A stretch of 34,535 nt of DNA, taken from the NCBI GenBank assembly GCA_017546455.1, contig JAFYWY010000098.1, positions 1 through 34,535 of the forward strand, written 5' to 3'. A program made the translations under genes and the position numbers. The notes under the pieces were generated by a model, which saw only the letters and a list, made by a program, of their open reading frames with translations, ran no database searches and had not been told where the DNA came from. This DNA comes from Opitutales bacterium (lineage in GTDB: Bacteria; Verrucomicrobiota; Verrucomicrobiia; Opitutales; UBA953). The number at the start of each line of letters is the position of its first letter. The stretch's first letter is position 1. Below are positions 3,437-25,689 of this stretch, piece by piece.

Positions 3437-4561
3437 TTATTTTCGCTGCGGCATGACCACGCAGAGGAAAGATTCGTCCTTGGTCTTGAATACACCCGGG
3501 CTCAGGTCGTCCTTGAATTCAAAGACTACGGAATCCTGGGTGAGCGCCTTGAGCGGATCGGTGATGAACTGCGGGTTGAAGGCAATGCGGGCTTCCGGTC
3601 CTTCGTAGCGGACAGCAAGCTTATCGCTCGCTTCGCCGTATTCGGTTGAGCTCGCCGTAATTTCGATCAGATTTGCCGAAATATTGAGCACCACGGAGCT
3701 GTTTTTATCCGTCGTCACCTTAGCAGCCTGAAGCACGGCGCTCAGAAGGTCTTCGCGTTCGACTTCGATGCGGTTGCCCGAATCCTTCGGAATCACTCCC
3801 TTGTACTGAGGATAGTTCCCTTCGACAATCTTGGAAACAATGCGAATCTTGTCCATCAGGCCGCCGTTGCCGTCGTTAACGTCGATTTCGAAAACAACCT
3901 GGCGTTCGCTGAGTGCGAATCGGATCTTACCGGAGCTGCCGAGTTGCTTCTGCAATTCGGAAATGGTTTTTGCGGGAAGGATGAACTGCGTCGGATTTTC
4001 GACCGAAACGGGCATCTTCTTTTCGCTGGTTGCCAAGCGGCGACCGTCCGTAGCCACGAGAGCCACCTTATCTTCGTTGAAGCTGAAGAGGACGCCGTTA
4101 AGGACGTAGCGATTTTCGTCCGTCGATTGTGCGTAGGAAACGGACTTAATCATCGAGGAGAGATCGCCCTGCTCGATTTCAAAAGCGAATTCGTCACCGA
4201 CCGGCGGTTCCGGCGGGAAGTCCACCGCGGGAATACCGATAGGATTGAACTTAGAGCTTCCCGAAGTAATCTTCACGCGGCTTTCGCCCTGCATTTCTAC
4301 AAAAACATCGCTGCTCTTGAAGCCGCTGACGATGTCTTTAAGCCATTTTGCCGGAAGCGTGATTTTACCAGCATCCATGATCTCGGCCTTGATTTTGCAG
4401 GAAATACGGAGATCAAGATTCGTCGTCGTCAGGCGAATGGAGTCGTTTTCCGCTTCAATAAGCACATTGACGAGAACCGGGAGGCTGAGACGATTGTTAA
4501 CTACGCTGACAACCTGGCCCAAACCGGCGGCAAAATGATCGCGATTGATTTTGAACTTCAT
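3437..4561 (-). CDS. dnaN: DNA polymerase III sliding clamp (beta subunit)
   Basis: Ring-shaped homodimeric clamp that tethers DNA polymerase III to DNA. The 374-residue length fits the family, with three repeated clamp folds. Recognisable segments are LPVLVNVLIEA and TTTNLDLRI in domain 1, ENRYVLNGVLF and LVATDGRRLA in domain 2, and the conserved C-terminal FLCVVMPQRK. The ATG at 4561 opens with MKFKINRDHF, typical for DnaN. The gene reads leftward out of the candidate origin at 4562-4860 and ends at its own terminator. dnaA and recF, common partners of dnaN, are not adjacent. Confidence 0.97.
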   Translation of the reverse strand: MKFKINRDHFAAGLGQVVSVVNNRLSLPVLVNVLIEAENDSIRLTTTNLDLRISCKIKAEIMDAGKITLPAKWLKDIVSGFKSSDVFVEMQGESRVKITSGSSKFNPIGIPAVDFPPEPPVGDEFAFEIEQGDLSSMIKSVSYAQSTDENRYVLNGVLFSFNEDKVALVATDGRRLATSEKKMPVSVENPTQFILPAKTISELQKQLGSSGKIRFALSERQVVFEIDVNDGNGGLMDKIRIVSKIVEGNYPQYKGVIPKDSGNRIEVEREDLLSAVLQAAKVTTDKNSSVVLNISANLIEITASSTEYGEASDKLAVRYEGPEARIAFNPQFITDPLKALTQDSVVFEFKDDLSPGVFKTKDESFLCVVMPQRK

Positions 4562-4860
4562 GGGTTTAAAGCTTGTTTCTTTTGACCTGCGTTTGCAAGT
4601 TTTCTTCTCGGGAACTTATTCACGCACATAATCCTTTCTTTGTTCTTAATTTATAAATTTTCTTACAATTAATATAGTCTGTGAATTCGGTGAATAAATG
4701 CGGAGAGCCTTTTATCTAAGCGGATTGTAAGGTACAACGAATTTGGGATAACTTTGTCGGGAGAATGTTCGAACTTTGTTAATAAAGATGTTCACGCCTC
4801 TATTTCCCCTTTATTCACAGAACTATTTACAAAGGAATTTTAAAATTTCTTGGCGTTCCC
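4562..4860. other. Candidate chromosomal replication origin (oriC)
   Basis: A 299-bp non-coding gap between divergently read dnaN and argS. Seen directly: TTATTCACA at 4811-4819, an exact match to the DnaA-box consensus TTWTNCACA; TTATTCACG at 4616-4624; and TTATTCACC on the minus strand (4689-4697). There are weaker matches at 4744-4752 (minus) and 4822-4830, and an A+T-rich tract at about 4643-4678 that could be the unwinding element. Context agrees: coding direction flips here, the + strand is G/T-rich to the right, and mnmE-mnmG and two parS sites lie within 7 kb. It must also contain the promoters of dnaN and argS. The origin call is inference. Confidence 0.6.
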
Positions 4861-4887
4861 GTGAAAATTGCTTCATGCTTCTTCCTT

Positions 4888-6681
4888 ATGGAAATTTGGT
4901 TCAACCCGGCTCAATCACTTGAAAGCATTTTAAAGAAAGTTGCGGGAACGCTGGAAGGCTTTTCCGAAGAATTTTCTCCGGACGTACGCGCTTCGGATCC
5001 CCGCTTCGGGGATTTTCAGGCAAACGGCGTTTTGGCGGAAGCTAAGCGCATGAAGAAGAATCCGCGCGAACTCGCGCAGTCCTTCGTCGCGGAACTGGAA
5101 AAATCGGGAGAGCTGGACTCTGACTTGGTGTCGATGAGTATTGCCGGCCCCGGATTCATCAATTTTAAATTTTCTCCGAAATTTTTCGGACTTTGGGTGG
5201 CGCAGTACCGCGATGCCGAAAATCTCAAAAAATCCTCGGGTACGCTTTACGCCGGAAAGAAAGTCGTCATCGACTATCCGTCTCCGAACACGGCTAAGCA
5301 AATGCACGTCGGTCACCTGCGTATTCTCGTTATCGGCGAGGCCATTGCGCGTCTGCTCCAATTCTGCGGTGCCGACCTCGTGCGCGACAACCACATCGGC
5401 GACTGGGGAACCAATTTCGGTATTCTGATTTTTGAAATCAAGCGGACGGGCTATGTTTTCCCGGAAGACGACAGCGTCGCCCTGGCCGAGCTGGAAGAAC
5501 TTTATAAGGCGGGAACGGCTTATGTTAAAGACGAGGAAGCTCACCCGGGCGCATTCGACGAAGCCCGTCTCGAACTCGTTAAATTGCAGCAGGGAGATCC
5601 CGAAAATCTCGAGATCTGGAAACGCATCGTTAAAGTTTCCAATGCTGCCTGCGAAAAAATCTACGATCTTTTCGGTGTGCATCCGGACGTTACGCTCGGG
5701 GAATCTTTCTATCGCGACAAGGTGGACCGCATTTACAAAGAACTCTGCGAATGCCAAATCGCCGAGGAAGACGAAGGCGCACTCATTGTTTGGAATGACT
5801 CCGATCCGCGCTACGCCCGCACCAACGAAAATGCAGCACCGTTTATCGTCCGTAAAAAAGACGGCGGATCCAATTACGCCTCCACTGACTTGGCAACGTT
5901 GCTCTATCGCGTAGAACATTTCAAGGCCGACGAAGTGGTTTATGTGACTGACGACCGCCAGCAGGACCATTTCCGCATGCTCTTCCTGACGGCAAAGCGC
6001 TGGTTTGATCAAAAGCAGTATCCCTTCCCCTCGCTGCGCCACGTCATGTTCGGAAAGATTCTCGGCGAAAACGGAAAGCCGATTAAAACCAAGGAAGGCG
6101 GCTCGATTAAGCTGAAATCCCTGGTGGATGAAGCCACCGAACGCGCCTTTGCGATTGTTTCCGAAAAGAATCCGGACCTTCCCGAAGAGGAAAGAAAGCA
6201 AATCGCCGGTACAATCGGTATCGCGGCAATCCGCTACGCCGACTTGCTCCAAAACCGCACGATTAATTACATGTTCTCATGGGATCGCCTCCTCGCATTT
6301 GAAGGAAATACCGCTCCCTACCTGCTCTACGCGGCTGCACGTATTTTGTCCATCTTCCGCAAGGCCGGAACAAGCTTTGAGGCCATCGCCGAAAACAACG
6401 ACGTACTGCTTCCGACCACCGACGGAGAAATCGCGCTCGTACGCAAGCTCATGGGCTTCTCGACGGCCGTACAAACTGCCTGTTCGGAACTCAAGCCGCA
6501 CTACATTTGCACCTATCTCTTCGAACTCGCGGGAACCTTCTCTTCGTTCTACGCAGCCGATAAGGTGATGGATGACGATGTAAATACGCGTAACTTACGT
6601 CTCCGACTCTGTGCAAATACGTACATGATTCTGAAAACCGGGTTGCACTTGCTCGGCATCGAAACGCTCAACCGCATGTAA
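4888..6681 (+). CDS. argS: Arginyl-tRNA synthetase
   Basis: Class I aminoacyl-tRNA synthetase that charges tRNA-Arg with arginine. The N-terminal Add-1 domain (about 1-105) is followed by [17 protein letters not shown], where HVGH (140-143) is the HIGH motif. Next come [12 protein letters not shown], the active-site region with [10 protein letters not shown] and [10 protein letters not shown], a divergent KMSKS region (KPIKTKEGG), and the helical anticodon-binding domain ending in [10 protein letters not shown], the usual ArgS tail. I prefer the ATG at 4888 (597 aa) because the family starts close to [12 protein letters not shown] at 4861 would add nine residues. It is followed after 11 bp by menB. 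Confidence 0.95.
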
Positions 6682-7541: not shown

Positions 7542-7703
7542 TTAATTCCCTACGGAAAGCTTAAAGAGACCCTGGCGAAGGAATAGTGGATAACTGACAA
7601 AGAATAGGTTTCTCAGCAAAAAGATCAAAGAAGCTCTCGCTTGATGCTTGGCGCTAATGTAATCATTCGGAATTCGCAATTGCGAAGCAGCCTCTTCAAG
7701 TCC

Positions 7704-7870
7704 GTGCGCCGGATGCGCACTACATTGGATAACCGCGGGTGTAGGCAGAGCCGAAACCCGCGGACAGGCCTCCGGCCTTTTGCGCTGCTAAGTGACGCAG
7801 ATTTGTCCCCGAGATTCCCGCGGCGCAATGGAACAAGCTACGCGCTCTTTTCGTAGATAAATCCCTAAAA
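7704..7870 (+). repeat. Dispersed structured intergenic repeat, copy 2
   Basis: Second copy of the unit at 162-325, in the same orientation, within the convergent gap between menB and rpsR. The first hairpin is GTGCGC/GCGCAC (7704-7720). The long stem is CCGCGGGT (7733-7740) / ACCCGCGG (7756-7763). A third hairpin AGGCC/GGCCT follows at about 7765-7778, then the conserved GCAGATTTGTCCC and the TAGATAAATCCCTAAAA end. Its 3' end touches the bidirectional terminator at 7871. The preceding 7542-7703 shows no gene or recognisable signal. Confidence 0.82.
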
Positions 7871-7908
7871 CAAAAAACGTTCCCGTGAAATCTGCGGGAA
7901 CGTTTTTT
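7871..7908. terminator. Bidirectional intrinsic terminator
   Basis: A-run, stem AACGTTCCCG / CGGGAACGTT with a short loop, then a T-run (7871-7908). A/T tracts on both sides let it serve menB (rightward) and back up rpsR (leftward). It has the same stem core as the terminators at 3391, 20021 and 24135. Confidence 0.85.
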
Positions 7909-7913
7909 AATAT

Positions 7914-7951
7914 AAAAAAAGGCGTCGTTCTCGGGAAGAGAACAACGCCTC
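7914..7951 (-). terminator. rpsR intrinsic terminator
   Basis: Read on the minus strand, AGGCGTTGTTCTC and GAGAACGACGCC pair around a short loop and are followed by seven Ts (7914-7920). It is 16 bp from the rpsR stop and forms a tandem with the bidirectional hairpin at 7871. Confidence 0.85.
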
Positions 7952-7966
7952 GGAAAGACTTTCGGC

Positions 7967-8155
7967 TTACTTCATCAGCAACATGTTACGTGCGCGCTTG
8001 ATGGCTTTCGTAACATGGCGCTGTTGCTTCGCGGTCAGTCCCGTAATGCGACGCGGCAAAATCTTGCCGGTTTCCGTGACATAGCGGGAAAGGACTTCCA
8101 CATCGGTGAAGTCAAAGTCTAACGGTGTTTTGGAATGTTGCTGTGTTTCTGCCAT
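7967..8155 (-). CDS. rpsR: 30S ribosomal protein S18
   Basis: Small-subunit ribosomal protein of the platform that binds 16S rRNA beside S6. Only 62 aa, but diagnostic: [19 protein letters not shown] followed by [19 protein letters not shown]. No cysteines are present, so this is the zinc-independent form. The gene stands alone, read leftward. The usual rpsF-ssb-rpsR-rplI cluster is not present here. Two tandem terminators follow it, which suits a single-gene transcript of a highly expressed protein. Start ATG at 8155. Confidence 0.95.
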
Positions 8156-8340
8156 AATGAAACGCCATTAACTCAAAATTCACCCGCCCTAGCAAGTTTT
8201 TTATTTGGGAGAATCCACGAATTCCACAGATTACACGGATTTTTTATTTTTGTTGTTTATTTATTCTCCTTTGCGCTTCTTTGTTAACGCCCTAACGCAT
8301 TGCGTTTTGTTGGTGGATATGCTTCATTTTCGGGATAATT
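8156..8340. promoter_or_regulatory. Divergent rpsR / mnmE promoter region
   Basis: A 185-bp A+T-rich gap between two divergent genes must carry both promoters; I cannot assign -35/-10 boxes with confidence. It contains a phrase at 8211-8241 (core CCACAGATTACACGG) that resembles a sequence I recall from intergenic DNA of many unrelated bacteria. Confidence 0.4.
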
Positions 8341-9700: not shown

Positions 9701-11578
9701 ATGAAAAAGGAAATCCGTATTGATTCAACGCGTCCTTATGACGTCATCGTAGTCGGTGCCGGGCATGCCGGCGTGGAAGCAGCTTTGGCTTCGGCGCGTA
9801 TGGGAGCTGACACTCTGCTCCTGACCGGGAATCTCGACACTATTGCCAAGATGAGTTGCAATCCCGCCATCGGCGGTCAGGCAAAGGGACATATTGTGCG
9901 CGAGATTGATGCAATGGGCGGCGAGATGGGAGTTTGCGCGGACGCAACGGCTATTCAATTTCGTATCCTGAATGCTTCTAAAGGGCCGGCAGTGCAGTCT
10001 CCTCGGGCGCAGTGTGACAAGTTGGTTTATGCGGCGCGCATGAAGCAAACCTGTGAATTACAGAAGAATTTAACCCTATTTCAGGCGATTGTTTCCGGCC
10101 TTATCTTGAAAAACGGGAAAGCTATCGGAGTGGATACAACCCTGGGCGTTTCTTTCTACGGAAAGACGGTGGTATTGACCACGGGAACGTTTTTGAAGGG
10201 GAAAATGTTTGTCGGGAGAAACGTTAACGAAGGCGGGCGTTTGGGTGATTTTAATGCGGAAACGCTTTCGGATAGTTTTAGAGATGTCGGAATGCAGGTG
10301 GAACGTTTGAAGACGGGGACACCGGCGCGCATTTTAGGCACGACGATTGATTTTTCTAAGTGTGATGAACAACCCGGGGATGAAAATCCGGTGTTTTTCG
10401 GTTTTTACGATACGCGTACGGAAGAGGATGTGTTCCACGTGGAACATACCGGGGAAACGCGTTTGGGGTGGACTCCGGGGACAAATCAGCGCTCTTGCTG
10501 GTTGGCGGACACGGCTCTTTCCACCCGTGATGTCGTCAACGCCAATATTCATGAATCGCCTCTGTACTCCGGTTTGATTAGCGGGACGGGGGCACGTTAT
10601 TGTCCCAGCATTGAGGATAAATATGTGAAGTTTCCCGATAAGGAGACACATCGTCTTTTCTTGGAGCCGGAAGGGCGTTTTTCCGATGAATGGTACATCA
10701 ACGGTTTTTCCACTTCCCTGCCCTTCTCGGTTCAGTTGGAAATGATTCGGAGTGTTCCTGCTTTGGAAAATGCAGCAATCCTTCGTCCTGCTTACGCGAT
10801 AGAATACGATTATGTCCCGCCGACACAGCTTTTTCCGACTTTGGAAACGAAGGCTGTGGAGAACCTTTTCTTGGGTGGGCAAATCAACGGTACTTCCGGT
10901 TATGAGGAAGCCGGGGTGCAGGGGTTGGTTGCAGGGGCTAATGCTGCGGCCCGTGTTTTAGGTTTGAAGCCCTTGGTGATCGGGCGTGAGCATGGTTATG
11001 CGGGGGTTTTGATTGATGATTTGGTGACTAAGGGGACCCAAGAGCCTTATCGCATGTTTACCAGTCGTGCGGAGTATCGCCTTCTTTTTAATCATGCCAG
11101 TGCCGAGTTGCGTTTAATTGATTTGATTGCGGATATGGGTCTTTTGAGTGAATCCCGTAAAAAGAATATTCGGGAAAAACAGGAGAAGATTCTTTATTGG
11201 ACGGATGCTCTTGAAAAAACGCTGATTAAGGGCGGTTACGCCGGAAATGTCCTTCGTAAGGATATTACGCTGGTTCCTGCGGATCTACCGGAGGCATTTA
11301 CTTCGCTTTCTAATGAAATTAAGGAAGAGGTCCTGTATCGTGTGCGTTATGCCGGATACCTTTCGCGTGAATTAAAGACGATTGAACGCATGAAGGATTT
11401 GGAGCGTGTCGCGATTCCTGCTGATTTGGATTATGATAAGATTCTCGGCTTGCGAATTGAGTCCCGGCAGAAGCTTTCTTCGATTCGCCCGATTAATTTG
11501 GCACAAGCGGAGCGTATTAGCGGAGTAAGCCCGGCGGACATTTCTCTTTTGATGGTTTATTTGCGTTCCCGAGCTTAG
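9701..11578 (+). CDS. mnmG: tRNA uridine-5-carboxymethylaminomethyl modification enzyme MnmG (GidA)
   Basis: FAD-dependent partner of MnmE in wobble-uridine modification. The Rossmann motif VVGAGHAGVEAALA begins at about residue 16. Family segments follow: MSCNPAIGGQAKGH, RGPAVQ-like KGPAVQSPRAQCD, LTTGTFLKG, GRLKTGTP-like ERLKTGTPARI, NGTSGYEEAGVQGL and TSRAEYRLL. The 625-residue length is normal. Codons 244-249 (VFHVEH) contain a perfect 16-bp parS palindrome, and a second copy lies 4 bp after the stop. It heads a tight rightward run through tlyA. Confidence 0.97.
   Translation: MKKEIRIDSTRPYDVIVVGAGHAGVEAALASARMGADTLLLTGNLDTIAKMSCNPAIGGQAKGHIVREIDAMGGEMGVCADATAIQFRILNASKGPAVQSPRAQCDKLVYAARMKQTCELQKNLTLFQAIVSGLILKNGKAIGVDTTLGVSFYGKTVVLTTGTFLKGKMFVGRNVNEGGRLGDFNAETLSDSFRDVGMQVERLKTGTPARILGTTIDFSKCDEQPGDENPVFFGFYDTRTEEDVFHVEHTGETRLGWTPGTNQRSCWLADTALSTRDVVNANIHESPLYSGLISGTGARYCPSIEDKYVKFPDKETHRLFLEPEGRFSDEWYINGFSTSLPFSVQLEMIRSVPALENAAILRPAYAIEYDYVPPTQLFPTLETKAVENLFLGGQINGTSGYEEAGVQGLVAGANAAARVLGLKPLVIGREHGYAGVLIDDLVTKGTQEPYRMFTSRAEYRLLFNHASAELRLIDLIADMGLLSESRKKNIREKQEKILYWTDALEKTLIKGGYAGNVLRKDITLVPADLPEAFTSLSNEIKEEVLYRVRYAGYLSRELKTIERMKDLERVAIPADLDYDKILGLRIESRQKLSSIRPINLAQAERISGVSPADISLLMVYLRSRA
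10431..10446. other. parS centromere-like site (inside mnmG)
   Basis: TGTTCCACGTGGAACA, a perfect 16-bp palindrome matching the chromosomal ParB-binding parS consensus, encoded within mnmG codons 244-249. An identical copy is at 11582. ParB nucleates on such sites, and ParA/SMC act on the nucleoprotein complex to segregate origins. parA and parB are not in the window. Confidence 0.85.
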
Positions 11579-11581
11579 CCG

Positions 11582-11597
11582 TGTTCCACGTGGAACA
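11582..11597. other. parS centromere-like site (after mnmG)
   Basis: Second perfect TGTTCCACGTGGAACA palindrome, 4 bp after the mnmG stop and 42 bp before the next gene. Being intergenic, it is not explained by protein coding. It lies about 6.8 kb from the candidate origin, a usual parS distance. Confidence 0.88.
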
Positions 11598-14217: not shown

Positions 14218-15033
14218 ATGGCATCGGTGAAGAAAGTTCGAGCGGACGAATTGCTTTTTGTCCAGGGGAAGGCGGAGTCGCGTTCTCAGGCAAAAATTTT
14301 AATTATGGCGGGAAAAGTCCGTAGCGGGAAAGATTCTGTCATTCAAAAGCCGGCGCAGTTGATTCCCGAAGACACGGAGCTTTGGGTGGAAAATCCGCCG
14401 CGCTTTGTCTCCCGGGGTGGAGAAAAATTGGCGGGAGCGATTGAAAAATTCTCCATTGATGTTGCGGGTTCTTACGCCTTAGATGTCGGAGCTTCTACCG
14501 GCGGGTTTACGGATTGCCTGCTTCAAAACGGAGCGGAAGCCGTCACTTGCATCGACGTCGGGCACGGTCAGCTCCATTTTAAACTGCGTAGTGATCCCCG
14601 TGTTTCCAATTTTGAGAAGGTTAATGCCCGGGCTTTGGATTCGGTCGAACTCCCGCGGGAAAGCTATGACTTTGTTGTCGGGGATTTATCCTTTATTTCG
14701 CTGACCAAGATTTTGGTGCCGTCGTGGAATCGCGTTTCCGAAGGCGGCGCGCTGATTATGCTTATCAAGCCTCAGTTTGAGGCAACGCGTGAAGAGGTTT
14801 CCCGCGGAAACGGAATTATTCGCGACGAGAAAATCCACCGGCGCGTGGTCGAGGAGGTACTCCAATTTTGCAAAGAAAATCTGAGCGACTTTAAGCTTGT
14901 CGGACTTTGCGATTCTCCGATTTTGGGTGGAGACGGCAATAAAGAGTTTCTCTTCTATGCCCGTAAATTAAAGAAACTTGAAGCTGAGAATTCTGAATCG
15001 CCTGCCGAAACGCCGATTCTTCCCGTTGGCTGA
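14218..15033 (+). CDS. tlyA: TlyA-family rRNA 2'-O-methyltransferase
   Basis: S4 RNA-binding domain (about 5-65, RADELLFVQGKAESRSQAK) followed by an FtsJ-like SAM methyltransferase domain. The segment PRFVSRGGEKLAGAIEKF is the TlyA hallmark, and the SAM-binding motif is ALDVGASTGGFTDCLL (from residue 87). IDVGHGQL, VGDLSFISL, LIKPQFE and GGDGNKEFLFY follow. Family members methylate ribose in 16S and/or 23S rRNA (relevant to capreomycin sensitivity in mycobacteria); haemolysin names are historical. 271 aa is the normal length. The 3' end overlaps the convergent gene at 14968 by 66 bp. Confidence 0.93.
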   Translation: MASVKKVRADELLFVQGKAESRSQAKILIMAGKVRSGKDSVIQKPAQLIPEDTELWVENPPRFVSRGGEKLAGAIEKFSIDVAGSYALDVGASTGGFTDCLLQNGAEAVTCIDVGHGQLHFKLRSDPRVSNFEKVNARALDSVELPRESYDFVVGDLSFISLTKILVPSWNRVSEGGALIMLIKPQFEATREEVSRGNGIIRDEKIHRRVVEEVLQFCKENLSDFKLVGLCDSPILGGDGNKEFLFYARKLKKLEAENSESPAETPILPVG

Positions 15034-17838
15034 TTCGTATTCGATTCCCGCACTCTGGGAGGAATCGAATAAATCCGGTAGGCGTTGAATTCTTGCTTCA
15101 AGATTGACTACGGCTTCCGTCTGCCGGGTTAGCGGATTGATTTGTTCCGATCGGAGAAGGAGGGTAAAACTGTCTCCGCGCGGACTTGCCCGTAGTGCGA
15201 GTGTTTCCAAAAGGTGTTCCTGTTTCAGGAATGCGGGAAACCATGCGGGAATTTTGTTGTCGTCGATGGTGTTAATTTGGGCGGATTCTATTCCGTTTTC
15301 GAGTATTCCGGAATCGGCGAAATCGGAAAGGGAAAGAAAAGGTTCCCGCTCTGAAAGACGTTGCTTGATTGTTTTGGCAAGGTAGTTGGCTAGAGAAGCG
15401 ACAGATTCGGGGGTGAGGCTACGTAATCCCTGGGCGAGTAAAAAATGCTCGCGCGAGCGCCGGGGTGCTTTTTCTAAGTCGCTGTCTTTCAGTGGATAAA
15501 TCTTTCCGCAGGAGGAAAAAATGTGAGCGGAGAAGGGCTGTGTGAAGTAAACGTTTTCCCAATCTTCCGGGTTGCTGTTTCGGTCCCAGGGCATGATTCG
15601 TCTCCGGTCACGTCCGGAGTATTGTTTCCATTGTCTGAAGGTATTGCTCAGAAGAGCCTCCCAGGCTTTTGTGTCCGTTGAGTTCAGATTGAACGGGCCG
15701 CGTATCATGCATTGCTCGGCAAAATTGAAATCTTTGCTTTTCTCGAGCGCTTGGAGTGAGAGCATTTGATCTTTATGGACGAAGAGCGGATTTTCGCTTG
15801 TCGTTGAAAATTCATTGCTAAATTGCAGCGAGAAAAAGTAACGGTCCAGAATTTGATTTATTTTTTGAGTTTTTACCGTTTCAGAATGGCGTCCGACAGC
15901 GAGTGGCGGAATCTTGTTTGCCTGAAGGAAACGCAGAGTTCCCGCAGAGGCATGCTTTCGGTTCGGAAGGTCGTAAAGCCTGATTTCCGAAAAGGCGGGC
16001 CTCGAGTTCTCTGTGCGGTGTTCGTTTACGAAGCGATCGAAGAAATAATTGCCGTCTTGTTCCTCTTCGGAGAGCCGGCGTGCTTCTTCTCCTGTATGGG
16101 CGGATACTTCGAAGGCGTTTGCAACGTAGGGGTTTTCGAAATCCAAAACGCCGTTTCGGAGGTCGCAGTGATCGAGCAGGTTTTTCATCGCTTTAGCGTC
16201 TTCGTATTTCAGTCGGATTCTAAATACGAGATTCGCCTGTTGTATCGTATAATCACCGGCTTTTTCGCGGTTGTATGTCTGGCCGCTTATAGTGAAATCG
16301 ACGTAGGGAAAGCGGAAGTTTTTTAGTGTGACGATTGGAGCCGAATAATCCTTAGGCTCCGTGGATTGCGGGAAGCTTCCGTTATAGTGTCGTATTACAA
16401 TGGATTCCGGAAGCATTGAAGGCATGGAAAAGATGTTAATCCTGTGCAAATCATGAAACCATCTGCCGTCGTTTGTTTTATAGGGGGCTTTGTTCGGATC
16501 GGAGTTTTTTTGAAATTTCCAGGTTGGGCCGCCGCAAATGCGCGAAAGCCCGGAACTTTGTCCTCGGGGGTCGGGAAATCGTGCGAGATAGATTTCGCCG
16601 GCGTGTAGCCCGGCAACGGGTGATTTGGGGTCATCTCCGAAACCCTGGTCACTTGCGTCGAAAATTTTGCAGTAGGCATTAAATGTTTTGTCCGAAGGTG
16701 TTTGCCTCACGAGCCCGAATCTTCCTGTCGGAAAATTTGAGAAATCGACGGAGAATTTTCCTCCTGTATCCAGATTTTGTATAAAGAAAGTCGGGAGTTG
16801 TGAAAAATCAATAAGGCCCAGTTGCCCGTCTGCGTGTGCGAGCATCGGGAATGTGTTCGGATTCCATAATTTCGCTGTGATGTGAAAGCGCACTCGGTGT
16901 TGTCCGTCCGTGCGTGCATTGATAAATCCGACGTGTAGTTTCAGGTCAACGGGAACGGGGACGATTCCGAAGCGGATTCCGAGTTGGCCGATTTCCGGCG
17001 GGACGGAACGGGAGACGGGAAGGCCGGCGTGGGGAAATTCTGGAAGCGCCTCTCTCAGGTTTTTAAGCAGGGAGGGCGGAAAGATTTCATCGCTGTTGTT
17101 TTCGTCGGAAAGGTCTTTTTTCAGTCGTTTGCGCGGCCAGTCGGCGATAACGCCGAAGGTGTGCAGGGTGGTGTCTGCAGGGGAAATTTTCTTTTGGCGT
17201 CCGTGCTTTGTGAAAAACCATGCGGGATCGTATTGTGCGGAGCGGATTGCTTCCGAGTGTTTTTCGTCCGAATCATCTCTGCGATTATCGTTTTTACCTA
17301 TGTAATTAAAATTCAATAATTGGTTGCGTGCCTGTCGCGTTGCTTCGTCTTCTTTGCCGGTCTTACTTTGCGGAGTCGGGCGTTTGGGCGGCACCAGCGG
17401 GAATTTTTGTGATTCGTCTATAATGAGATAGGCGAATCGGAATTGTTCGCCGACGTATTCCCAGGGAGCGGAGAGTGCCTTTCCGTCGTTTGATTTTCTC
17501 GGAAATTCCGCATGCTCGGTATCGGCAGTCTGCCCTGTGCCGGAGGAGAGCGGTACCGGTGTCTCCGGAGAGATTTTTTCCGGAAAATGGGGCGGCGGAT
17601 TGGCAACATTCCAGGCGAGGTGCGGGAAGCCGCTTGCGGAATGAGGATGGGCGCTTGTGACGACGGCATCGGTTCCCGCGATTTCCTGGAGACGGGCGAG
17701 GGCGATTTCGGCGGCATTGTAAGCAAAAGCCTGTAATGCGCTCCGTTTCTGTTTGGCGTCACTGATTTGTTTTTCGCGGTCGGCATGTGCTGAAACGGCG
17801 ATTCCGACGGCGCTCATGAGCAGGAGCAATACGGCCAC
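14968..17838 (-). CDS. Verru_Chthon cassette protein A-like prepilin protein
   Basis: A large (956 aa from the first GTG) protein whose N-terminus is a type IV prepilin-like helix. In frame upstream of 17838 the reading continues as RGKGFSLLAVAVLL (codons back to about 17868), i.e. a G|F prepilin cleavage site followed by the hydrophobic helix. Then come RSALQAFAYNAAEIALARLQEIAGTDAVVTS, which matches the layout of Verru_Chthon cassette A proteins as I know them. A long extracellular region with PNTFPMLAHADGQL and YDLPNRKHASAG follows. The frame is open to 17940 without ATG, GTG or TTG, so the true start is either a rare codon (ATT at 17877 or 17868, ATA at 17928) or lies behind a frameshift. 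Cassette proteins B-D are not adjacent. Confidence 0.75.
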   Translation of the reverse strand: MAVLLLLMSAVGIAVSAHADREKQISDAKQKRSALQAFAYNAAEIALARLQEIAGTDAVVTSAHPHSASGFPHLAWNVANPPPHFPEKISPETPVPLSSGTGQTADTEHAEFPRKSNDGKALSAPWEYVGEQFRFAYLIIDESQKFPLVPPKRPTPQSKTGKEDEATRQARNQLLNFNYIGKNDNRRDDSDEKHSEAIRSAQYDPAWFFTKHGRQKKISPADTTLHTFGVIADWPRKRLKKDLSDENNSDEIFPPSLLKNLREALPEFPHAGLPVSRSVPPEIGQLGIRFGIVPVPVDLKLHVGFINARTDGQHRVRFHITAKLWNPNTFPMLAHADGQLGLIDFSQLPTFFIQNLDTGGKFSVDFSNFPTGRFGLVRQTPSDKTFNAYCKIFDASDQGFGDDPKSPVAGLHAGEIYLARFPDPRGQSSGLSRICGGPTWKFQKNSDPNKAPYKTNDGRWFHDLHRINIFSMPSMLPESIVIRHYNGSFPQSTEPKDYSAPIVTLKNFRFPYVDFTISGQTYNREKAGDYTIQQANLVFRIRLKYEDAKAMKNLLDHCDLRNGVLDFENPYVANAFEVSAHTGEEARRLSEEEQDGNYFFDRFVNEHRTENSRPAFSEIRLYDLPNRKHASAGTLRFLQANKIPPLAVGRHSETVKTQKINQILDRYFFSLQFSNEFSTTSENPLFVHKDQMLSLQALEKSKDFNFAEQCMIRGPFNLNSTDTKAWEALLSNTFRQWKQYSGRDRRRIMPWDRNSNPEDWENVYFTQPFSAHIFSSCGKIYPLKDSDLEKAPRRSREHFLLAQGLRSLTPESVASLANYLAKTIKQRLSEREPFLSLSDFADSGILENGIESAQINTIDDNKIPAWFPAFLKQEHLLETLALRASPRGDSFTLLLRSEQINPLTRQTEAVVNLEARIQRLPDLFDSSQSAGIEYESANGKNRRFGRRFRILSFKFL

Positions 17839-18053: not shown

Positions 18054-19988
18054 ATGGAACTTATCGAAGCGATTAAGGCGGCTTTTGCGGCCGGCAATAT
18101 TACCGAAGACACGAAAAACAACTTCACGGAATGGCTTTCCGCCGGATTCCTTCCGGCTTGGGCTGTCACGGCGATTGAAGAGCTCGTCGCCGACGCTCAG
18201 TGGAGCGAAATCAACGACCGATTTTTCAAGAAGATCGCCTTTGGTACGGGCGGGATGCGTGGCCGTACCATCGGAAAAGTAACGCCGCCGGCGGAGGCGG
18301 GTACGCGCGATGCTCTCGGTGCTCCGGAACATCCGGCTGTCGGCACGGCCAACCTGAACGACTTCAATATCGTTCGCGCAACGGTCGGTTTGTTCCGCTA
18401 TATTTCCAAGTACCTCGCTTCTACGGGGGCAACGCGCGCACCGCGTATCGTCATTGCCCACGACGTCCGCCATTTCTCGAAGCACTTCTCGCAACTTGCG
18501 GCGAGCATCTGGACGAAGCTCGGCGGGGAAGCTTATGTTTTTGATGATGCCCGTTCCGTCCCGCAGCTGAGCTTCACGATTCGCGCTCTTGAAACGGATA
18601 CCGGTATCGCATTGACGGCGAGCCACAACCCGTCGCACGACAACGGCTTCAAGTGCTACTTCAACGACGGAGCGCAGGTTATTTCTCCGCATGCGGAATC
18701 CATCATCGGCGAAGTTAATGCCGTAACGCTTGCGGACATTCCGCAGTTCCTGACAAAGGATCTCTCGCAGGTCAAAATCGTTCCCGCGGAAATCGAAGAA
18801 CGCTATCTCACGGACCTGGAATGCGCCGTTTTGGACAAGGCCGTTATCAAGGAATCGCCGATTAAGCTCTGCTACACGAATATTCACGGTACGGGCGACG
18901 TGATGATCGTCCCCGCGATGAAGAAATTCGGCGTTGACATCACGGTGGTCGAGGAACAGCTGCCGCACGACGGCCGCTTCCCGACTGTTAAGTCGCCGAA
19001 TCCGGAAAACGCCGAGGCATTTACGCTCTCGCTTGCCAAGGCTAAGGAAATCGGTGCGGATATTGTTATCGGAACGGACCCGGACGACGACCGTGTCGGC
19101 ATCGCCGCGCGCAATCGTGACGGCTCCTATACGCTTTACTCCGGCAACCAAACCGGATCCATGCTCACGGCTTTCCGTTGCGCCCGCATGAAAGAACTCG
19201 GTATCCTGCCGCCGGAAGGTTCTCCGCACGCGACGATTATTAAGACCTTCGTCACGTCGCCGATTTGGGACGTCATCGCCGAAAAGAACGGCCTGCGCTG
19301 CGTGAACGCGCTTACGGGCTTTAAGTGGATCGGCGCAAAGCTTCAGAAGTACCAGAAGGAAGTTGAGAAGACCGTCCCGAATTATATGTCGCTTCCGTGG
19401 CGCGAACGTGCGGCGGCGCAGCTTTCCGCAGGTATGTTCTACGTATTCGGCGGCGAAGAAAGCTACGGCTATCTGCACTCGGATAGCGTCCGCGATAAGG
19501 ACGGCAATGCCGCAGCACTCATGGTTGTCGAAATGGCTTCCTGGGTGAAGGCTAAGGGCATGACGCTTCCGGAATACCTTGATTCGATTTATCGCGATTA
19601 CGGTTACTTCCAGGAATCCTTGCTCAATATCGTCCTCGAAGGTGCTAAGGGCGCTGCGCAAATTAAGCGCATCCTGGCTTCGCTCCGCGAAAATCCGCCG
19701 CAGGAGGTCCTCGGGAAGAAGGTTGTTTCCTTCCTCGATTTCGGCCGCGACGAAATTAAGGATTGCGACGGCGACATTATTCCGAAGGAAGACTTCTACT
19801 TCTTCACCTTGGAAGACGGCATGAAGATTGCCGTGCGCGGAAGCGGAACCGAACCCAAGATCAAGTTCTACCTCTTCGCGACGAGCTCGAATCCGGACCT
19901 TGCTGCCGCTAAGGCGGATGCTGCGGCTGCAATCGATGCCGCCAAGGCATTCCTGCAGGAAGAGGCGATGAAGCGCGCCGACGCGTAA
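18054..19988 (+). CDS. Phosphoglucomutase / phosphomannomutase
   Basis: Alpha-D-phosphohexomutase that interconverts sugar 1- and 6-phosphates through a phosphoserine and links glycolysis to glycogen, envelope and capsule sugars. 644 aa. Motifs in order: FGTGGMRG (about 62-69), the catalytic TASHNPSHDNG loop with S190, the metal-binding DPDDDRVG (342-349), the sugar-binding GGEESYGYL, and the C-terminal phosphate loop RGSGTEPKIKFYL. Length and the EWLSAG-type N-terminus fit the long PgcA-like branch. Codons are strongly biased to AAG, GAA, TTC, CGC and ATC, which suggests high expression. A terminator follows. pgcA is a possible symbol, but I cannot fix substrate preference. Confidence 0.93.
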   Translation: MELIEAIKAAFAAGNITEDTKNNFTEWLSAGFLPAWAVTAIEELVADAQWSEINDRFFKKIAFGTGGMRGRTIGKVTPPAEAGTRDALGAPEHPAVGTANLNDFNIVRATVGLFRYISKYLASTGATRAPRIVIAHDVRHFSKHFSQLAASIWTKLGGEAYVFDDARSVPQLSFTIRALETDTGIALTASHNPSHDNGFKCYFNDGAQVISPHAESIIGEVNAVTLADIPQFLTKDLSQVKIVPAEIEERYLTDLECAVLDKAVIKESPIKLCYTNIHGTGDVMIVPAMKKFGVDITVVEEQLPHDGRFPTVKSPNPENAEAFTLSLAKAKEIGADIVIGTDPDDDRVGIAARNRDGSYTLYSGNQTGSMLTAFRCARMKELGILPPEGSPHATIIKTFVTSPIWDVIAEKNGLRCVNALTGFKWIGAKLQKYQKEVEKTVPNYMSLPWRERAAAQLSAGMFYVFGGEESYGYLHSDSVRDKDGNAAALMVVEMASWVKAKGMTLPEYLDSIYRDYGYFQESLLNIVLEGAKGAAQIKRILASLRENPPQEVLGKKVVSFLDFGRDEIKDCDGDIIPKEDFYFFTLEDGMKIAVRGSGTEPKIKFYLFATSSNPDLAAAKADAAAAIDAAKAFLQEEAMKRADA

Positions 19989-20020
19989 TGATCGGTTCTC
20001 CGAAAAAGAACATGCTTTCC

Positions 20021-20057
20021 CGTTCCCGTGACGATTGCCGTCGCGGGAACGTTTTTT
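20021..20057 (+). terminator. Intrinsic terminator downstream of the phosphohexomutase
   Basis: CGTTCCCG (20021-20028) pairs with CGGGAACG (20044-20051), followed by six Ts. It lies 32 bp past the stop codon and separates this gene from crcB. It shares its stem core with three other terminators in the window. Confidence 0.82.
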
Positions 20058-20091
20058 CCCTTTGTTCGAGAAAAACGAAGCTCGTGGCCCG

Positions 20092-20472
20092 ATGAATCCG
20101 GAAGTCTTGAAAAACGTATTGGCCGTCGGTTTCGGAAGTGCCCTCGGCGGTATTGCGCGTTACGGAATCGCCCTCGCCCTGAAAAATCTCAGTGGAGCCT
20201 TTCCGTGGGGAACCCTGTGTGTTAACGCGCTCGGGTGCTTCCTGCTCGGTCTGCTTTGGGGCTGGTTCGGTCGTCACGGCAACACGGACGGAGCTTGGGC
20301 GCTTTTTCTCTCGGTCGGCTTTTGCGGCGGTTTTACGACGTTTTCCACCTTCTCCAAGGAAGCACTGGCTTTACTCCAGAGCGGGGCGTGGACGGCTTTT
20401 GTGCTCTACCTCATCGGGAGTGTCGTCGTCGGCCTCGTTCTGATGCTGCTGGCTTACTCGCTCGCGAAATAG
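20092..20472 (+). CDS. crcB: Fluoride ion channel CrcB/Fluc
   Basis: Small dual-topology channel that expels fluoride. 126 aa with four hydrophobic segments. Family marks are GGIARYG (about 19-25), GTLCVNALGCFLLG (N45 conserved in the pore), and GFCGGFTTFSTFSKE, which holds the phenylalanine-box residues (F81, F84, F87) and the central sodium site. The ATG at 20092 is chosen. An upstream TTG (20035) would place the N-terminus inside the terminator hairpin. I see no fluoride riboswitch in the 100 bp upstream. Confidence 0.93.
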   Translation: MNPEVLKNVLAVGFGSALGGIARYGIALALKNLSGAFPWGTLCVNALGCFLLGLLWGWFGRHGNTDGAWALFLSVGFCGGFTTFSTFSKEALALLQSGAWTAFVLYLIGSVVVGLVLMLLAYSLAK

Positions 20473-20496
20473 CGTCAACGAAGCTGTCCGGCTGAG

Positions 20497-20512
20497 TGCT
20501 ACACGTGGAACA
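20497..20512. other. Degenerate parS-like site
   Basis: TGCTACACGTGGAACA differs from the two perfect parS palindromes at 2 of 16 positions and sits in an intergenic gap 15.7 kb from the candidate origin. One half-site and the CACGTG core are intact. It may be a weak ParB site or chance. Confidence 0.35.
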
Positions 20513-20591
20513 CCGGCTCCGTTTGCGGCTTGTGGGCTGTAAATTTGTTTGGAATTTTTAGGTGTATGCGTTAATCTTCGCGGCATATAGG

Positions 20592-20840
20592 ATGTGTACT
20601 CTCCGCAGAGATTGGATTCTTTCCCGAATGGCGTATTTGTCGCTGTCCGGCGGAATATTTGTCTTGGCGGCCTGTGCGGCGCGGGAACCCGAAGATCCGG
20701 GTTACAACAAACCGGCGGTTTCCGGCGTCGTAAGCGGAGAAATTCAGTCTATGGACGGCTATCTCGAGGCCGTTCGGAAGGAAAACGAACGCCGAATCAG
20801 GACCGAAGGCGATGTTTGGAGCAATCCGGAAGATTTTTAA
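20592..20840 (+). CDS. Small putative lipoprotein
   Basis: 82 aa from the ATG at 20592; alternatives are 20562 and 20628, none with a clear ribosome-binding site. A basic n-region, a hydrophobic stretch (YLSLSGGIFVLAAC) and the lipobox LAAC mark a lipoprotein signal. The mature part is short (about 53 aa) and charged: PEDPGYNKPAVSG, SMDGYLEAV, RKENERRIR and a terminal DVWSNPEDF. I know no function. It ends 11 bp before the RelE-like gene and may be cotranscribed with it and pssA. Confidence 0.65.
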   Translation: MCTLRRDWILSRMAYLSLSGGIFVLAACAAREPEDPGYNKPAVSGVVSGEIQSMDGYLEAVRKENERRIRTEGDVWSNPEDF

Positions 20841-20851
20841 AAAGAATACTT

Positions 20852-21202
20852 ATGAACCAGTTAAATTTCAGTGACCAAAGCACGGCGGAGCTCAATAAGC
20901 TGTCCCCGCTCGATCAGATGCCCATCATTGATGCCTTGACGAATATTTCGCTCGACGAGTTGAAGAACGACAAGAATGCCTACGGTGCATTTGTCCGCGG
21001 CAAGCAGACCTTCTATCGCCTCCGTCAGGGCGACTTACGGATTTATTTCACGGCCTCCGAAAACGAAATCTTCTGCAGCTATATCCTGCACAAACACAGC
21101 ATCACGGATTTCGCTTTCCGTGCCAATCTCCCCGTTAAGGACGAGCACATCGTCGAACAGGACAAGAATTTCTGGGATTATCTCGATTCCTTTAACAAAT
21201 AA
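20852..21202 (+). CDS. Orphan RelE/ParE-fold-like protein
   Basis: 116 aa. The first half is helical (LNFSDQSTAELNKL, MPIIDALTNI). The second half has the strand pattern of RelE/ParE toxins, with KQTFYRLRQGDLRIYFT followed by FCSYILHKH. This is the YRLRxGDyRi / ihHR pattern of the superfamily, though the basic residues of an active RNase are only partly recognisable. An acidic tail (EHIVEQDKNFWDYLDSF) is extra. No antitoxin gene flanks it: upstream is a lipoprotein, and downstream (21 bp) pssA. It may have been domesticated to another role. The fold assignment is by eye. Confidence 0.65.
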   Translation: MNQLNFSDQSTAELNKLSPLDQMPIIDALTNISLDELKNDKNAYGAFVRGKQTFYRLRQGDLRIYFTASENEIFCSYILHKHSITDFAFRANLPVKDEHIVEQDKNFWDYLDSFNK

Positions 21203-21223
21203 CCCAAACCGGAGCAAAAGGAC

Positions 21224-22147
21224 ATGAACGACGACAATCAAACCGTTCCCGCGCCGACGGAGCCGAAATACAAGTGCGTCCAGGATGCCGCGAGAATTTA
21301 CATCCTCCCGAATTTCTTCACGGCGGGAAATATGTTTTGCGGCTTCATGTCGCTCTGCCAGTGCATCGAAGCGAAGTACAGCGAGACTCTTGCTGCCGCC
21401 AACGAAAAGTACATGCTCGCCGTCTATCTGATTTTCGGGGCCTGCCTTTTCGACCTCTTCGACGGCCGCATGGCGCGCATGTTTAAGAAAGAATCGATGT
21501 TCGGGGCTGAGTTCGACTCGATTGCCGACACCGTTTCCTTCGGCGTTGCCCCCGCGTTTCTGGTTTACTTCCTGATTCTCGACCCGAGCCGCAGCGCTGC
21601 CGAATTCGGCGATATGCTCGCGAAGGTCGGTCCGATAGTCGGCTTCATTTACCTGCTTTGCGCGGGTATCCGCTTGGCGAAGTTCAACGTATTGACGAAT
21701 CCGCTCATCCCCGGCAACGAGAAGAAGAGCCCGGCATCCGATTTCATGGGCATTCCCTCGCCGGTGGCCGCCGCGATTACCGCATCGTTCGTGCTCCTGC
21801 TTACGAGCATGAACGGCGGAGAAACGAACTCTTCCGCCCAAACGCTTCAGGACTACATTCCGATCGTGTTGCTTCCGACGATGGTGCTCGTTTCCATTCT
21901 CATGGTTACGAATATCCCGTATCCGACCTTCAAGCACATCAACTGGAATACGAAGGCAAAGGCCCAAGCCTTTATCCTTATTGTGCTCTTCGTTATCTTC
22001 GCCTTGTTGTTCCACGTGTACGCGATTCCCGCTGCGCTGTTGGCATATGTGCTTTTCGGGCTGATTCGCGCCTTGCGCCGGAAAATCTCCCGCGGGAAAG
22101 TCGTCCCCGAAGAAGAGGAAAACGGAGCGATTGAAGATACGTTCTAA
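21224..22147 (+). CDS. pssA: CDP-diacylglycerol-serine O-phosphatidyltransferase
   Basis: Integral membrane enzyme that makes phosphatidylserine, the precursor of phosphatidylethanolamine, from CDP-diacylglycerol and serine. It carries the complete CDP-alcohol phosphotransferase signature D80-G81-x2-A84-R85-x8-G94-x3-D98-x3-D102. The N-terminal IYILPNFFTAGNMFCGF is typical of the Gram-positive-like/type II PssA subclass. There are six or more hydrophobic segments up to about residue 285 and an acidic cytosolic tail. The 307-residue length is somewhat longer than many homologues. psd, the next enzyme, is not in the window. Confidence 0.92.
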   Translation: MNDDNQTVPAPTEPKYKCVQDAARIYILPNFFTAGNMFCGFMSLCQCIEAKYSETLAAANEKYMLAVYLIFGACLFDLFDGRMARMFKKESMFGAEFDSIADTVSFGVAPAFLVYFLILDPSRSAAEFGDMLAKVGPIVGFIYLLCAGIRLAKFNVLTNPLIPGNEKKSPASDFMGIPSPVAAAITASFVLLLTSMNGGETNSSAQTLQDYIPIVLLPTMVLVSILMVTNIPYPTFKHINWNTKAKAQAFILIVLFVIFALLFHVYAIPAALLAYVLFGLIRALRRKISRGKVVPEEEENGAIEDTF

Positions 22148-22228
22148 ATCTCCCGTTTTTCGGCTTGCAAAAGCATGCCCGTAAGCATTCCATTTCGAAC
22201 AAACCTTATTTAAGATTTTTTAATCACT

Positions 22229-23068
22229 ATGAAGAAAGCAATCCTCCCCCTTACGATGCTCGCTCTCGCCGGTACCGCGTTTGCGCAGCAGGCCGCTGTT
22301 GCTCAGGAAAACAACGTCGAAGTCGGCGCTAAATTTGCCTACGAATCCCACTACGTGTATCGCGGGATTGACCAGTCTGATGACAACCTCCAGACGACGC
22401 TCAATGTCGGTGTTGGCGGTTTCGGTTCCGGCTACTGGGCTGTCCGTGCTTACGGCGAACTCGCCTACATGTCCCCGGTTTCCGACGAAGGCAATGAAGC
22501 CGATTGGACCCTCGGAGCACGTGCTGTCTACGCTGACGAATACTTCTTTGACTTCGGCTATCGCTTTAAGAGCTACCCGAACGGCGGCATTGAACACGCC
22601 CACTCGATGCGCCGCGCTTACGTCAACCGCTCCAACGAACTGTTCCTCCAGGTTGGTCGTGATGTCGAGCTCGTTACGGACGAAGATTGGTCCCGCGTCA
22701 TCATTTCCGGTTCTGTCTCCTACGACTGGAATCTTGAGCAGACCACCTGGGAAGTTTCCGCCGAAAAGACTTTCGAAAGCATTTTCACTAACGAAACGGA
22801 TCTCGCTCTCGGCGTTACCTACGGCTACATCACCGCAAACGATTGGATCGGTGACCAGTACCATGGCGTCGGCGATCCGGACAACGATTACGGCTATCTC
22901 ACGGTCAAGGCAGACCTCATTTACCACCTGAATACCTCGACCGAGCTCAGCGTCGGCGTCCACTATTCCTACAACAATGACCATGACCGCTATGTCGGTG
23001 CGTGGCGTGTTATGGACATTGATTGCAACACCTTCTGGTGGGGTGTTTCGCTCAATTTCTGCTACTAA
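22229..23068 (+). CDS. TorF-like outer-membrane beta-barrel protein
   Basis: 279 aa with a standard signal peptide (about 1-20, ending AFAQ) and no cytoplasmic features. The mature protein is a run of alternating polar/aromatic strands: KFAYESHYVYRGIDQS, YWAVRAYGELAY and YGYLTVKADLIYHL. It closes with a terminal aromatic strand, WWGVSLNFCY, as required for BAM insertion. The SHYVYRGIDQSDD segment is the mark of TorF-family putative porins. Codon choice is extremely biased, like gap, suggesting an abundant protein. gap begins 45 bp after its stop with no terminator between, so partial cotranscription is possible. Confidence 0.8.
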   Translation: MKKAILPLTMLALAGTAFAQQAAVAQENNVEVGAKFAYESHYVYRGIDQSDDNLQTTLNVGVGGFGSGYWAVRAYGELAYMSPVSDEGNEADWTLGARAVYADEYFFDFGYRFKSYPNGGIEHAHSMRRAYVNRSNELFLQVGRDVELVTDEDWSRVIISGSVSYDWNLEQTTWEVSAEKTFESIFTNETDLALGVTYGYITANDWIGDQYHGVGDPDNDYGYLTVKADLIYHLNTSTELSVGVHYSYNNDHDRYVGAWRVMDIDCNTFWWGVSLNFCY

Positions 23069-23101
23069 TCCATCGAAAAACTATTTTTTTAACCTACATA
23101 A

Positions 23102-24115
<1,014 letters not shown>

Positions 24116-24134
24116 GTAATTTCGGATAATTGAG

Positions 24135-24171
24135 AAAAACGTTCCCGCAAGCAACGGCGGGAACGTTTTTT
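24135..24171 (+). terminator. gap intrinsic terminator
   Basis: AAAAACGTTCCCGC (24135-24148) pairs with GCGGGAACGTTTTT (24157-24170) around an 8-nt loop, followed by further Ts. Strong, possibly bidirectional, with the same stem core as three other terminators here. Confidence 0.9.
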
Positions 24172-24216
24172 ATTTTTACGCTTTAAGAAGCTACAACTTC
24201 AAATTAGATTCTGAGC

Positions 24217-25629: not shown

Positions 25630-25647
25630 TATCGCATTCGACGATTT

Positions 25648-25689
25648 CATCCTCCGTAAGCATTTAAGCTACGGGGGATGTTTGTTTTT
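25648..25689 (+). terminator. ahcY intrinsic terminator
   Basis: CATCCTCCGTA (25648-25658) pairs with TACGGGGGATG (25670-25680) with a single G-U pair, followed by TTTGTTTTT. It is 18 bp past the ahcY stop. Confidence 0.87.

What the first reader, a model, noticed from the sequence alone, without database searches (positions are those of the whole stretch)
4562..4860. Candidate chromosomal oriC in the dnaN-argS gap, away from dnaA
Seen: an exact DnaA-box match (TTATTCACA, 4811) and two one-off boxes (4616; 4689 minus) in a 299-bp gap with an A+T-rich tract. dnaN and the genes left of it read left, and most genes right of it read right. The + strand to the right is G- and T-rich even over the minus-strand gene at 14968-17838 (for example 21 G versus 12 C at 15121-15180). 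Known: mnmE-mnmG and parS are typically origin-proximal. Inference: replication starts here although dnaA is not adjacent.
Basis: partly seen in the sequence, partly recalled or inferred. Interest (0 to 1): 0.65.

Follow-up and report, generated by a model that had tools for sequence, protein, structure and literature searches.

The report
Chromosome replication origin beside dnaN
The 299-base gap next to the sliding-clamp gene dnaN is very probably the spot where this bacterium (order Opitutales, phylum Verrucomicrobiota) starts copying its chromosome, an ordinary kind of origin that here sits away from the initiator gene dnaA and has stayed with dnaN while its other neighbours changed.

Summary
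DnaA boxes are about 17-fold (one-off) to 95-fold (exact) enriched upstream of dnaN across 111 Opitutales sequences. In a complete relative (G040) the cumulative GC-skew minimum falls 54 bp beyond the dnaN–pssA gap; in a same-genus genome with the same dnaN|argS arrangement (G003) it falls inside that gap. dnaA lies on another contig here and 1.0 and 0.25 Mb from dnaN in two (near-)complete relatives. All parS sites of the genome lie in this window. The gap also has a basal-unwinding-system-like core: tandem boxes, a 4-base spacer, four DnaA-trio-like steps, an AT-rich tract. Two rival box clusters (upstream of dnaA; at mraZ–rsmH) show no skew switch. The window's own skew is weak evidence: its minimum is at 6.6-8.0 kb, probably because codon bias masks it. 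An oriC beside dnaN, apart from dnaA, is already known from cyanobacteria, so this is a new member of a known kind. No replication was measured.

The parts
4562..4860 (.). proposed oriC: intergenic region between divergent dnaN and argS
   Evidence: box cluster, order-wide box enrichment upstream of dnaN, skew minima at the equivalent place in relatives
4811..4819 (+). DnaA box TTATTCACA, exact
   Evidence: a box in the same orientation at -258 to -263 from dnaN recurs in G004 (exact), G002 and G007 (one-off)
4777..4785 (-).
   Evidence: G004 has one at -230 in the same orientation
4689..4697 (-). DnaA box TTATTCACC, one mismatch; first of the tandem pair
   Evidence: aligned boxes at -136 to -141 in G002, G004, G007
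4680..4688 (-). weak DnaA box GAATTCACA (two mismatches), directly abutting the previous one
   Evidence: the ...ACAG end aligns in all six genus members
4664..4675 (-). four DnaA-trio-like steps (ATA TTA ATT GTA, i.e. middle A on the other strand) after a 4-base spacer GACT (4676-4679)
   Evidence: rule taken from PMC8287927
4640..4680 (.). AT-rich tract (80-90% AT), presumed unwinding element
   Evidence: relatives also peak in AT at -100 to -40 from dnaN
4616..4624 (+). DnaA box TTATTCACG, one mismatch, on the dnaN side of the AT-rich tract
   Evidence: counterparts at -52 to -54 in G002, G004, G007
3437..4561 (-). dnaN, sliding clamp; the neighbour that stays beside the box cluster in all relatives compared
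   Evidence: Pfam PF00712/PF02767/PF02768; gene orders
4861..6681 (+). argS; neighbour on the other side here and in G003 and G006, replaced by pssA in most relatives
10431..10446 (.). parS TGTTCCACGTGGAACA inside mnmG
11582..11597 (.). parS TGTTCCACGTGGAACA just after mnmG
20497..20512 (.). parS-like site with two mismatches

Best explanation
The gap 4562-4860 is the chromosomal origin (oriC). Proposed steps: DnaA, made from a dnaA gene elsewhere on the chromosome, binds the boxes at 4811, 4777 and 4689/4680; the tandem pair 4689/4680 guides a DnaA oligomer onto the adjoining trio-like steps (4664-4675) and opens the AT-rich tract 4640-4680; helicases load and two forks leave in opposite directions; ParB at the parS sites 6-16 kb away segregates the new origins. 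The box cluster, tandem box-spacer-trio layout, parS placement, and skew switch at the equivalent place in relatives are shown. DnaA binding, unwinding and actual initiation here are inferred.
For: (1) Four boxes in 299 bp against 0.25 in shuffles, 0 of 2000 reach four. (2) In 111 dnaN loci of the order, boxes in the 400 bp upstream of dnaN run at 0.45/kb exact and 4.5/kb one-off, against 0.005 and 0.26/kb in the rest of the same loci; 1.66 per 300 bp against 0.24 in shuffles and 0.08 upstream of another gene; the top enriched 8-mers, sought without assuming a box, are TGTTCACA/TTGTTCAC, a box variant. (3) Complete relative G040: skew flips minus to plus only between 2.23 and 2.34 Mb among the samples, minimum 2,293,674, gap 2,293,276-2,293,620; dnaA at 680,279 with no flip. 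G003, same dnaN|argS arrangement: minimum 25,425 inside the gap 25,335-25,653; G008 within 1.4 kb; G007 within 1-4.5 kb. (4) All parS sites of this genome are in this window and an exact or one-mismatch parS lies 3-91 kb from dnaN in all 13 relatives searched. (5) Box positions and orientations recur in the genus whether the other neighbour is argS or pssA. (6) Tandem box, spacer and trio layout at -133 to -145 in this and related genera. (7) Own-genome rivals C60 (dnaA) and C44 (mraZ) have no skew switch.
Against: The window's own GC-skew minimum is at 6.6-8.0 kb, and third-position GC skew does not switch the expected way at 4.7 kb: dnaN +0.21, argS -0.23. Only 4.5 kb of the left arm is on the contig. 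Two other places in the genome hold as many or more boxes. In G004 and G055 the skew minimum is 3-11 kb from the dnaN gap. G006 has a weak, irregular skew around the gap. Only about 42% of the own genome could be scanned for other switches, and one further contig (C19) shows a switch of similar strength.
Confidence: 0.92

Rival explanations
1. The boxes are a DnaA-regulated promoter of dnaN (transcriptional control), and the origin is elsewhere.
For: DnaA boxes also cluster upstream of dnaA (six in about 304 bp, C60:15384-15695) and between mraZ and rsmH (C44), where there is no skew switch, so a box cluster alone does not make an origin.
Against: Skew minima fall at the dnaN-upstream gap in G040 and G003 and close to it in G008 and G007; parS lies near dnaN in all 13 relatives. 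A double role, origin and promoter, remains possible.
Confidence: 0.04
2. The origin is in this window but in the mostly non-coding stretch 7542-8340 before mnmE, near the window's own skew minimum.
For: GC-skew minimum 6558, G+T minimum 7983; one one-off box at 7585.
Against: Only one box there; the stretch holds an rpsR-like frame; in relatives with other gene orders the minimum follows dnaN, not mnmE (G040, G008). The shift is explained by C-ending codon preference in genes such as argS, gapA and sahH, which show negative coding-strand GC3 skew, as icd and dnaN do on the other strand (inference).
Confidence: 0.03
3. The origin is beside dnaA (contig C60), as in most bacteria.
For: Six boxes within about 304 bp upstream of dnaA; in Methylacidiphilum, of the same phylum, the origin is placed 250 nt or about 6.6 kb upstream of dnaA (PMC2474590, PMC4210602).
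Against: GC skew on C60 stays +0.05 to +0.17 across 52 kb with no switch, and likewise no minus-to-plus switch around dnaA in G002, G003, G004, G007 or at the sampled positions in G040.
Confidence: 0.01

Closest known systems
oriC of Synechococcus elongatus PCC 7942 and Cyanothece ATCC 51142 (circular chromosome)
   Same: oriC next to the start of dnaN, DnaA boxes plus an AT-rich stretch, a GC-skew shift point at dnaN in S. elongatus (PMC7198777, PMC4674748); dnaA not directly adjacent
   Different: the reported cyanobacterial box consensus is TTTTCCACA, here TTATTCACA/TTGTTCACA types; unrelated phylum; flanking gene is argS or pssA
Basal unwinding system (BUS) of Bacillus subtilis oriC
   Same: tandem DnaA boxes, short spacer, trios with conserved middle A, adjacent unwinding tract (rule from PMC8287927; found)
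   Different: B. subtilis oriC lies at dnaA; here the second box is weak and only four trios are seen, although relatives L102, L106 and L107 have eight
oriC of Methylacidiphilum infernorum and M. fumariolicum (same phylum)
   Same: single origin placed by GC skew
   Different: placed 250 nt or about 6.6 kb upstream of dnaA (PMC2474590, PMC4210602), not beside dnaN away from dnaA
oriC of Escherichia coli (from general knowledge; PMC8287927 for the separation from dnaA)
   Same: origin separated from dnaA, near mnmG (gidA)
   Different: E. coli oriC abuts mnmG itself; here it abuts dnaN, about 5 kb from mnmG

Membership tests
Bacterial chromosomal oriC (DnaA-dependent) | cluster of DnaA boxes beyond chance | tested here: met
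   4 boxes, shuffle mean 0.25, 0 of 2000; order-wide enrichment
Bacterial chromosomal oriC (DnaA-dependent) | AT-rich unwinding element next to boxes | tested here: met
   80-90% AT at about 4640-4680
Bacterial chromosomal oriC (DnaA-dependent) | cumulative GC-skew minimum at the site, in this genome | tested here: inconclusive
   105 contigs; window minimum 6.6-8.0 kb; second strongest minus-to-plus switch of 46 contigs scanned
Bacterial chromosomal oriC (DnaA-dependent) | cumulative GC-skew minimum at the equivalent site in relatives | tested here: met
   G040 and G003 within 0.1 kb of or inside the gap, G008 within 1.4 kb, G007 within 5 kb; G004 and G055 3-11 kb off
Bacterial chromosomal oriC (DnaA-dependent) | parS sites of ParABS nearby | tested here: met
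   all parS sites of the genome at 10431, 11582, 20497
Bacterial chromosomal oriC (DnaA-dependent) | DnaA binds and replication initiates | not testable with these tools
   needs binding assay and marker frequency
BUS-type unwinding core | DnaA box (at most 2 mismatches), spacer of at most 16, at least three trios with middle A | tested here: met
   TTATTCACC+GAATTCACA, GACT, four trios; tandem pairs this close to consensus with at least 3 trios: 5% of loci against 0.2% of shuffles
BUS-type unwinding core | trios required for unwinding | not testable with these tools
   needs strand-separation assay
dnaA-adjacent oriC (the common bacterial layout) | origin beside dnaA | tested here: not met
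   dnaA on contig C60 with no skew switch; 1.0 Mb from dnaN in G040 and 0.25 Mb in G055

The most novel reading that the evidence does not exclude
Within one genus the block oriC+dnaN has changed its partner (pssA to argS) without losing origin function, so the origin behaves as a movable module tied to dnaN; and the separate, denser DnaA-box cluster upstream of dnaA acts as a titration or timing site for an origin that lies far away.
Probability: 0.3. Interest if true: 0.4.

Novelty: new member of a known kind. Interest (0 to 1): 0.3.

Why it matters
It gives a located, comparable oriC for an order of bacteria known mostly from metagenomes, showing that in Opitutales the origin goes with dnaN and not dnaA. 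That matters for setting chromosome coordinates, estimating growth rates from read depth, and building plasmids; placing the origin at dnaA by default would be wrong by up to about 1 Mb.

Tried and rejected
Contig-level skew signs cannot be compared between contigs because their orientation is arbitrary, so only switches within contigs were used. Local skew of the window as a locator was rejected: codon preference for C-ending codons probably confounds it. Rejected as origins: the C44 cluster (mraZ-rsmH) and the dnaA upstream cluster, because skew does not switch there. BUS enrichment over all 107 loci is modest with loose rules (36% against 13%), so only the strict tandem form within the family is used as support. 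Literature searches for a described Opitutales/Opitutus origin found none in the held library; prediction databases such as DoriC could not be queried.

Full report
What is there. The window is the whole of contig C93 (34,535 bp) of a 105-contig, 2.15-Mb assembly. The closest named DnaN relatives are Opitutae/Puniceicoccales/Opitutaceae, phylum Verrucomicrobiota. Gap 4562-4860 separates divergent dnaN and argS. Four boxes in 299 bp compare with a shuffle mean of 0.25, and none of 2000 shuffles reaches four. The tract at about 4640-4680 is 80-90% AT.

Comparison within the order. In 111 sequences with dnaN, DnaA boxes in the 400 bp upstream of dnaN run at 0.45/kb (exact) and 4.5/kb (one-off), against 0.005 and 0.26/kb in the rest of the same loci. 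Since that background is mostly coding, two further controls were run: dinucleotide shuffles (1.66 boxes per 300 bp against 0.24) and the 300 bp upstream of another conserved gene (0.08). An 8-mer count that assumed no motif put TGTTCACA/TTGTTCAC, a one-off DnaA box, first. A few of these loci are near-duplicates (the same genome held in two collections); four were dropped, which leaves the picture unchanged.

Where relatives switch strand. In G040 (one contig, 2.63 Mb) 20 samples of 20 kb show negative GC skew from 1.04 to 2.23 Mb and positive from 2.34 Mb round to 0.93 Mb. Contiguous sequence places the minimum at 2,293,674, next to the dnaN-pssA gap 2,293,276-2,293,620. dnaA is at 680,279, about 1.0 Mb away. 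In G003, of the same genus and with the same dnaN|argS arrangement, the minimum at 25,425 lies inside the gap 25,335-25,653. G008 (93,807; gap 92,143-92,407) and G007 (64,029 or, for G+T, 67,589; gap 68,466-68,733) are close; G004 and G055 are 3-11 kb off with flat profiles. G006, also with the argS arrangement, has an irregular skew.

parS. Every parS-like site (TGTTCCACGTGGAACA, up to two mismatches) of this genome is in the window: 10431, 11582 and 20497. All 13 relatives searched have an exact or one-mismatch site on the dnaN contig, 3-91 kb from dnaN. The pair inside and just after mnmG, about 1.15 kb apart, recurs in G002, G004 and G007.

Gene order. Most relatives have a small conserved gene, pssA, the gap and dnaN in a row. 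This genome, G003 and G006 have argS in place of pssA, with pssA about 16 kb away on the argS side in this window. The box positions counted from dnaN stay similar in both arrangements: about -260, -225, -137 and -55. So the box cluster keeps with dnaN while the other neighbour changes.

Core element. By the published rule for the basal unwinding system (PMC8287927), the gap holds TTATTCACC (4689-4697, minus) directly abutting GAATTCACA (4680-4688), a spacer GACT, and four steps with a middle T on this strand, hence a middle A on the other (ATA TTA ATT GTA, 4664-4675). The same layout sits at -133 to -145 in G002, G004, G007 and in another genus of the family, where eight steps are present (L102, L106, L107). 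Over all loci, tandem pairs this close to consensus with three or more trios occur in 5% against 0.2% of shuffles; looser criteria give 36% against 13%. The family-level match is strong; the order-wide one is modest.

Rivals inside the genome. An exact-box search found two other clusters: upstream of dnaA (C60; six boxes within about 304 bp) and at mraZ-rsmH (C44; five within about 73 bp). GC skew stays positive over all 52 kb of C60 and negative over all 66 kb of C44, so neither is at a strand switch. Among 46 contigs scanned (42% of the genome), C93 has the second strongest minus-to-plus switch; C19 is slightly stronger. This own-genome test is consistent, not decisive.

What does not fit. 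The window's own cumulative minimum is at 6558 (GC) or 7983 (G+T), and third-position GC skew is +0.21 for dnaN and -0.23 for argS. The likely cause (inference) is preference for C-ending codons: argS, gapA, sahH and an outer-membrane-like protein on the plus strand, and dnaN and icd on the minus strand, all have C over G at third positions of their coding strand, whereas mnmE, mnmG and the genes up to 17.8 kb follow the replication strand, including the minus-strand gene 14968-17838 (+0.38). Third-position T over A does change sign between dnaN (-0.21) and the genes to its right. The gene names icd, gapA, sahH, hisB, hisH and lepB are partly from Pfam and partly from reading the translations.

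What is known. An oriC beside dnaN with dnaA elsewhere is described for cyanobacteria, experimentally for Synechococcus elongatus (PMC7198777; PMC4674748). In Methylacidiphilum, of the same phylum, the origin was placed near dnaA. I found no description of an Opitutales origin in the held papers, but DoriC could not be queried. This is a new member of a known kind.

Confidence. That the gap is the oriC: 0.92. Shown: boxes, layout, parS, skew in relatives. Inferred: DnaA binding, unwinding and initiation in this organism.

Noticed in passing
G000:C60:15384-15695 (L185): Six DnaA boxes (two exact) in about 300 bp upstream of dnaA, a denser cluster than at the origin gap, without a skew switch; probably dnaA autoregulation or DnaA titration. 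Similar clusters lie upstream of dnaA in G002, G003, G004, G007.
   Followed up: partly
G000:C44:61582-62231 (L191): Box-like TGTGAATAA repeats with about 10-11 bp period upstream of mraZ and between mraZ and rsmH; could be MraZ operators and not DnaA sites.
   Followed up: no
window 10431-10446 and 11582-11597: A pair of exact parS sites about 1.15 kb apart, inside and just after mnmG; the pair and its spacing recur in G002, G004 and G007.
   Followed up: partly
window 20594-22147: pssA and a small conserved gene before it, which sit directly upstream of the dnaN gap in most relatives, are displaced to the argS side here and in G006.
   Followed up: yes
window 7542-7964: Non-coding stretch after the enoyl-CoA hydratase gene, one one-off DnaA box at 7585, near the local skew minimum; content not explained.
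   Followed up: no
window 18054-25629: Plus-strand genes (phosphomutase-like, pssA, outer-membrane-like, gapA, sahH) with C over G at third codon positions, opposite to the surrounding strand skew; read as codon preference of highly expressed genes.
   Followed up: partly
G000:C19 (L223), about 3650: Another contig with a minus-to-plus GC-skew switch of similar strength to C93; not examined further.
   Followed up: no
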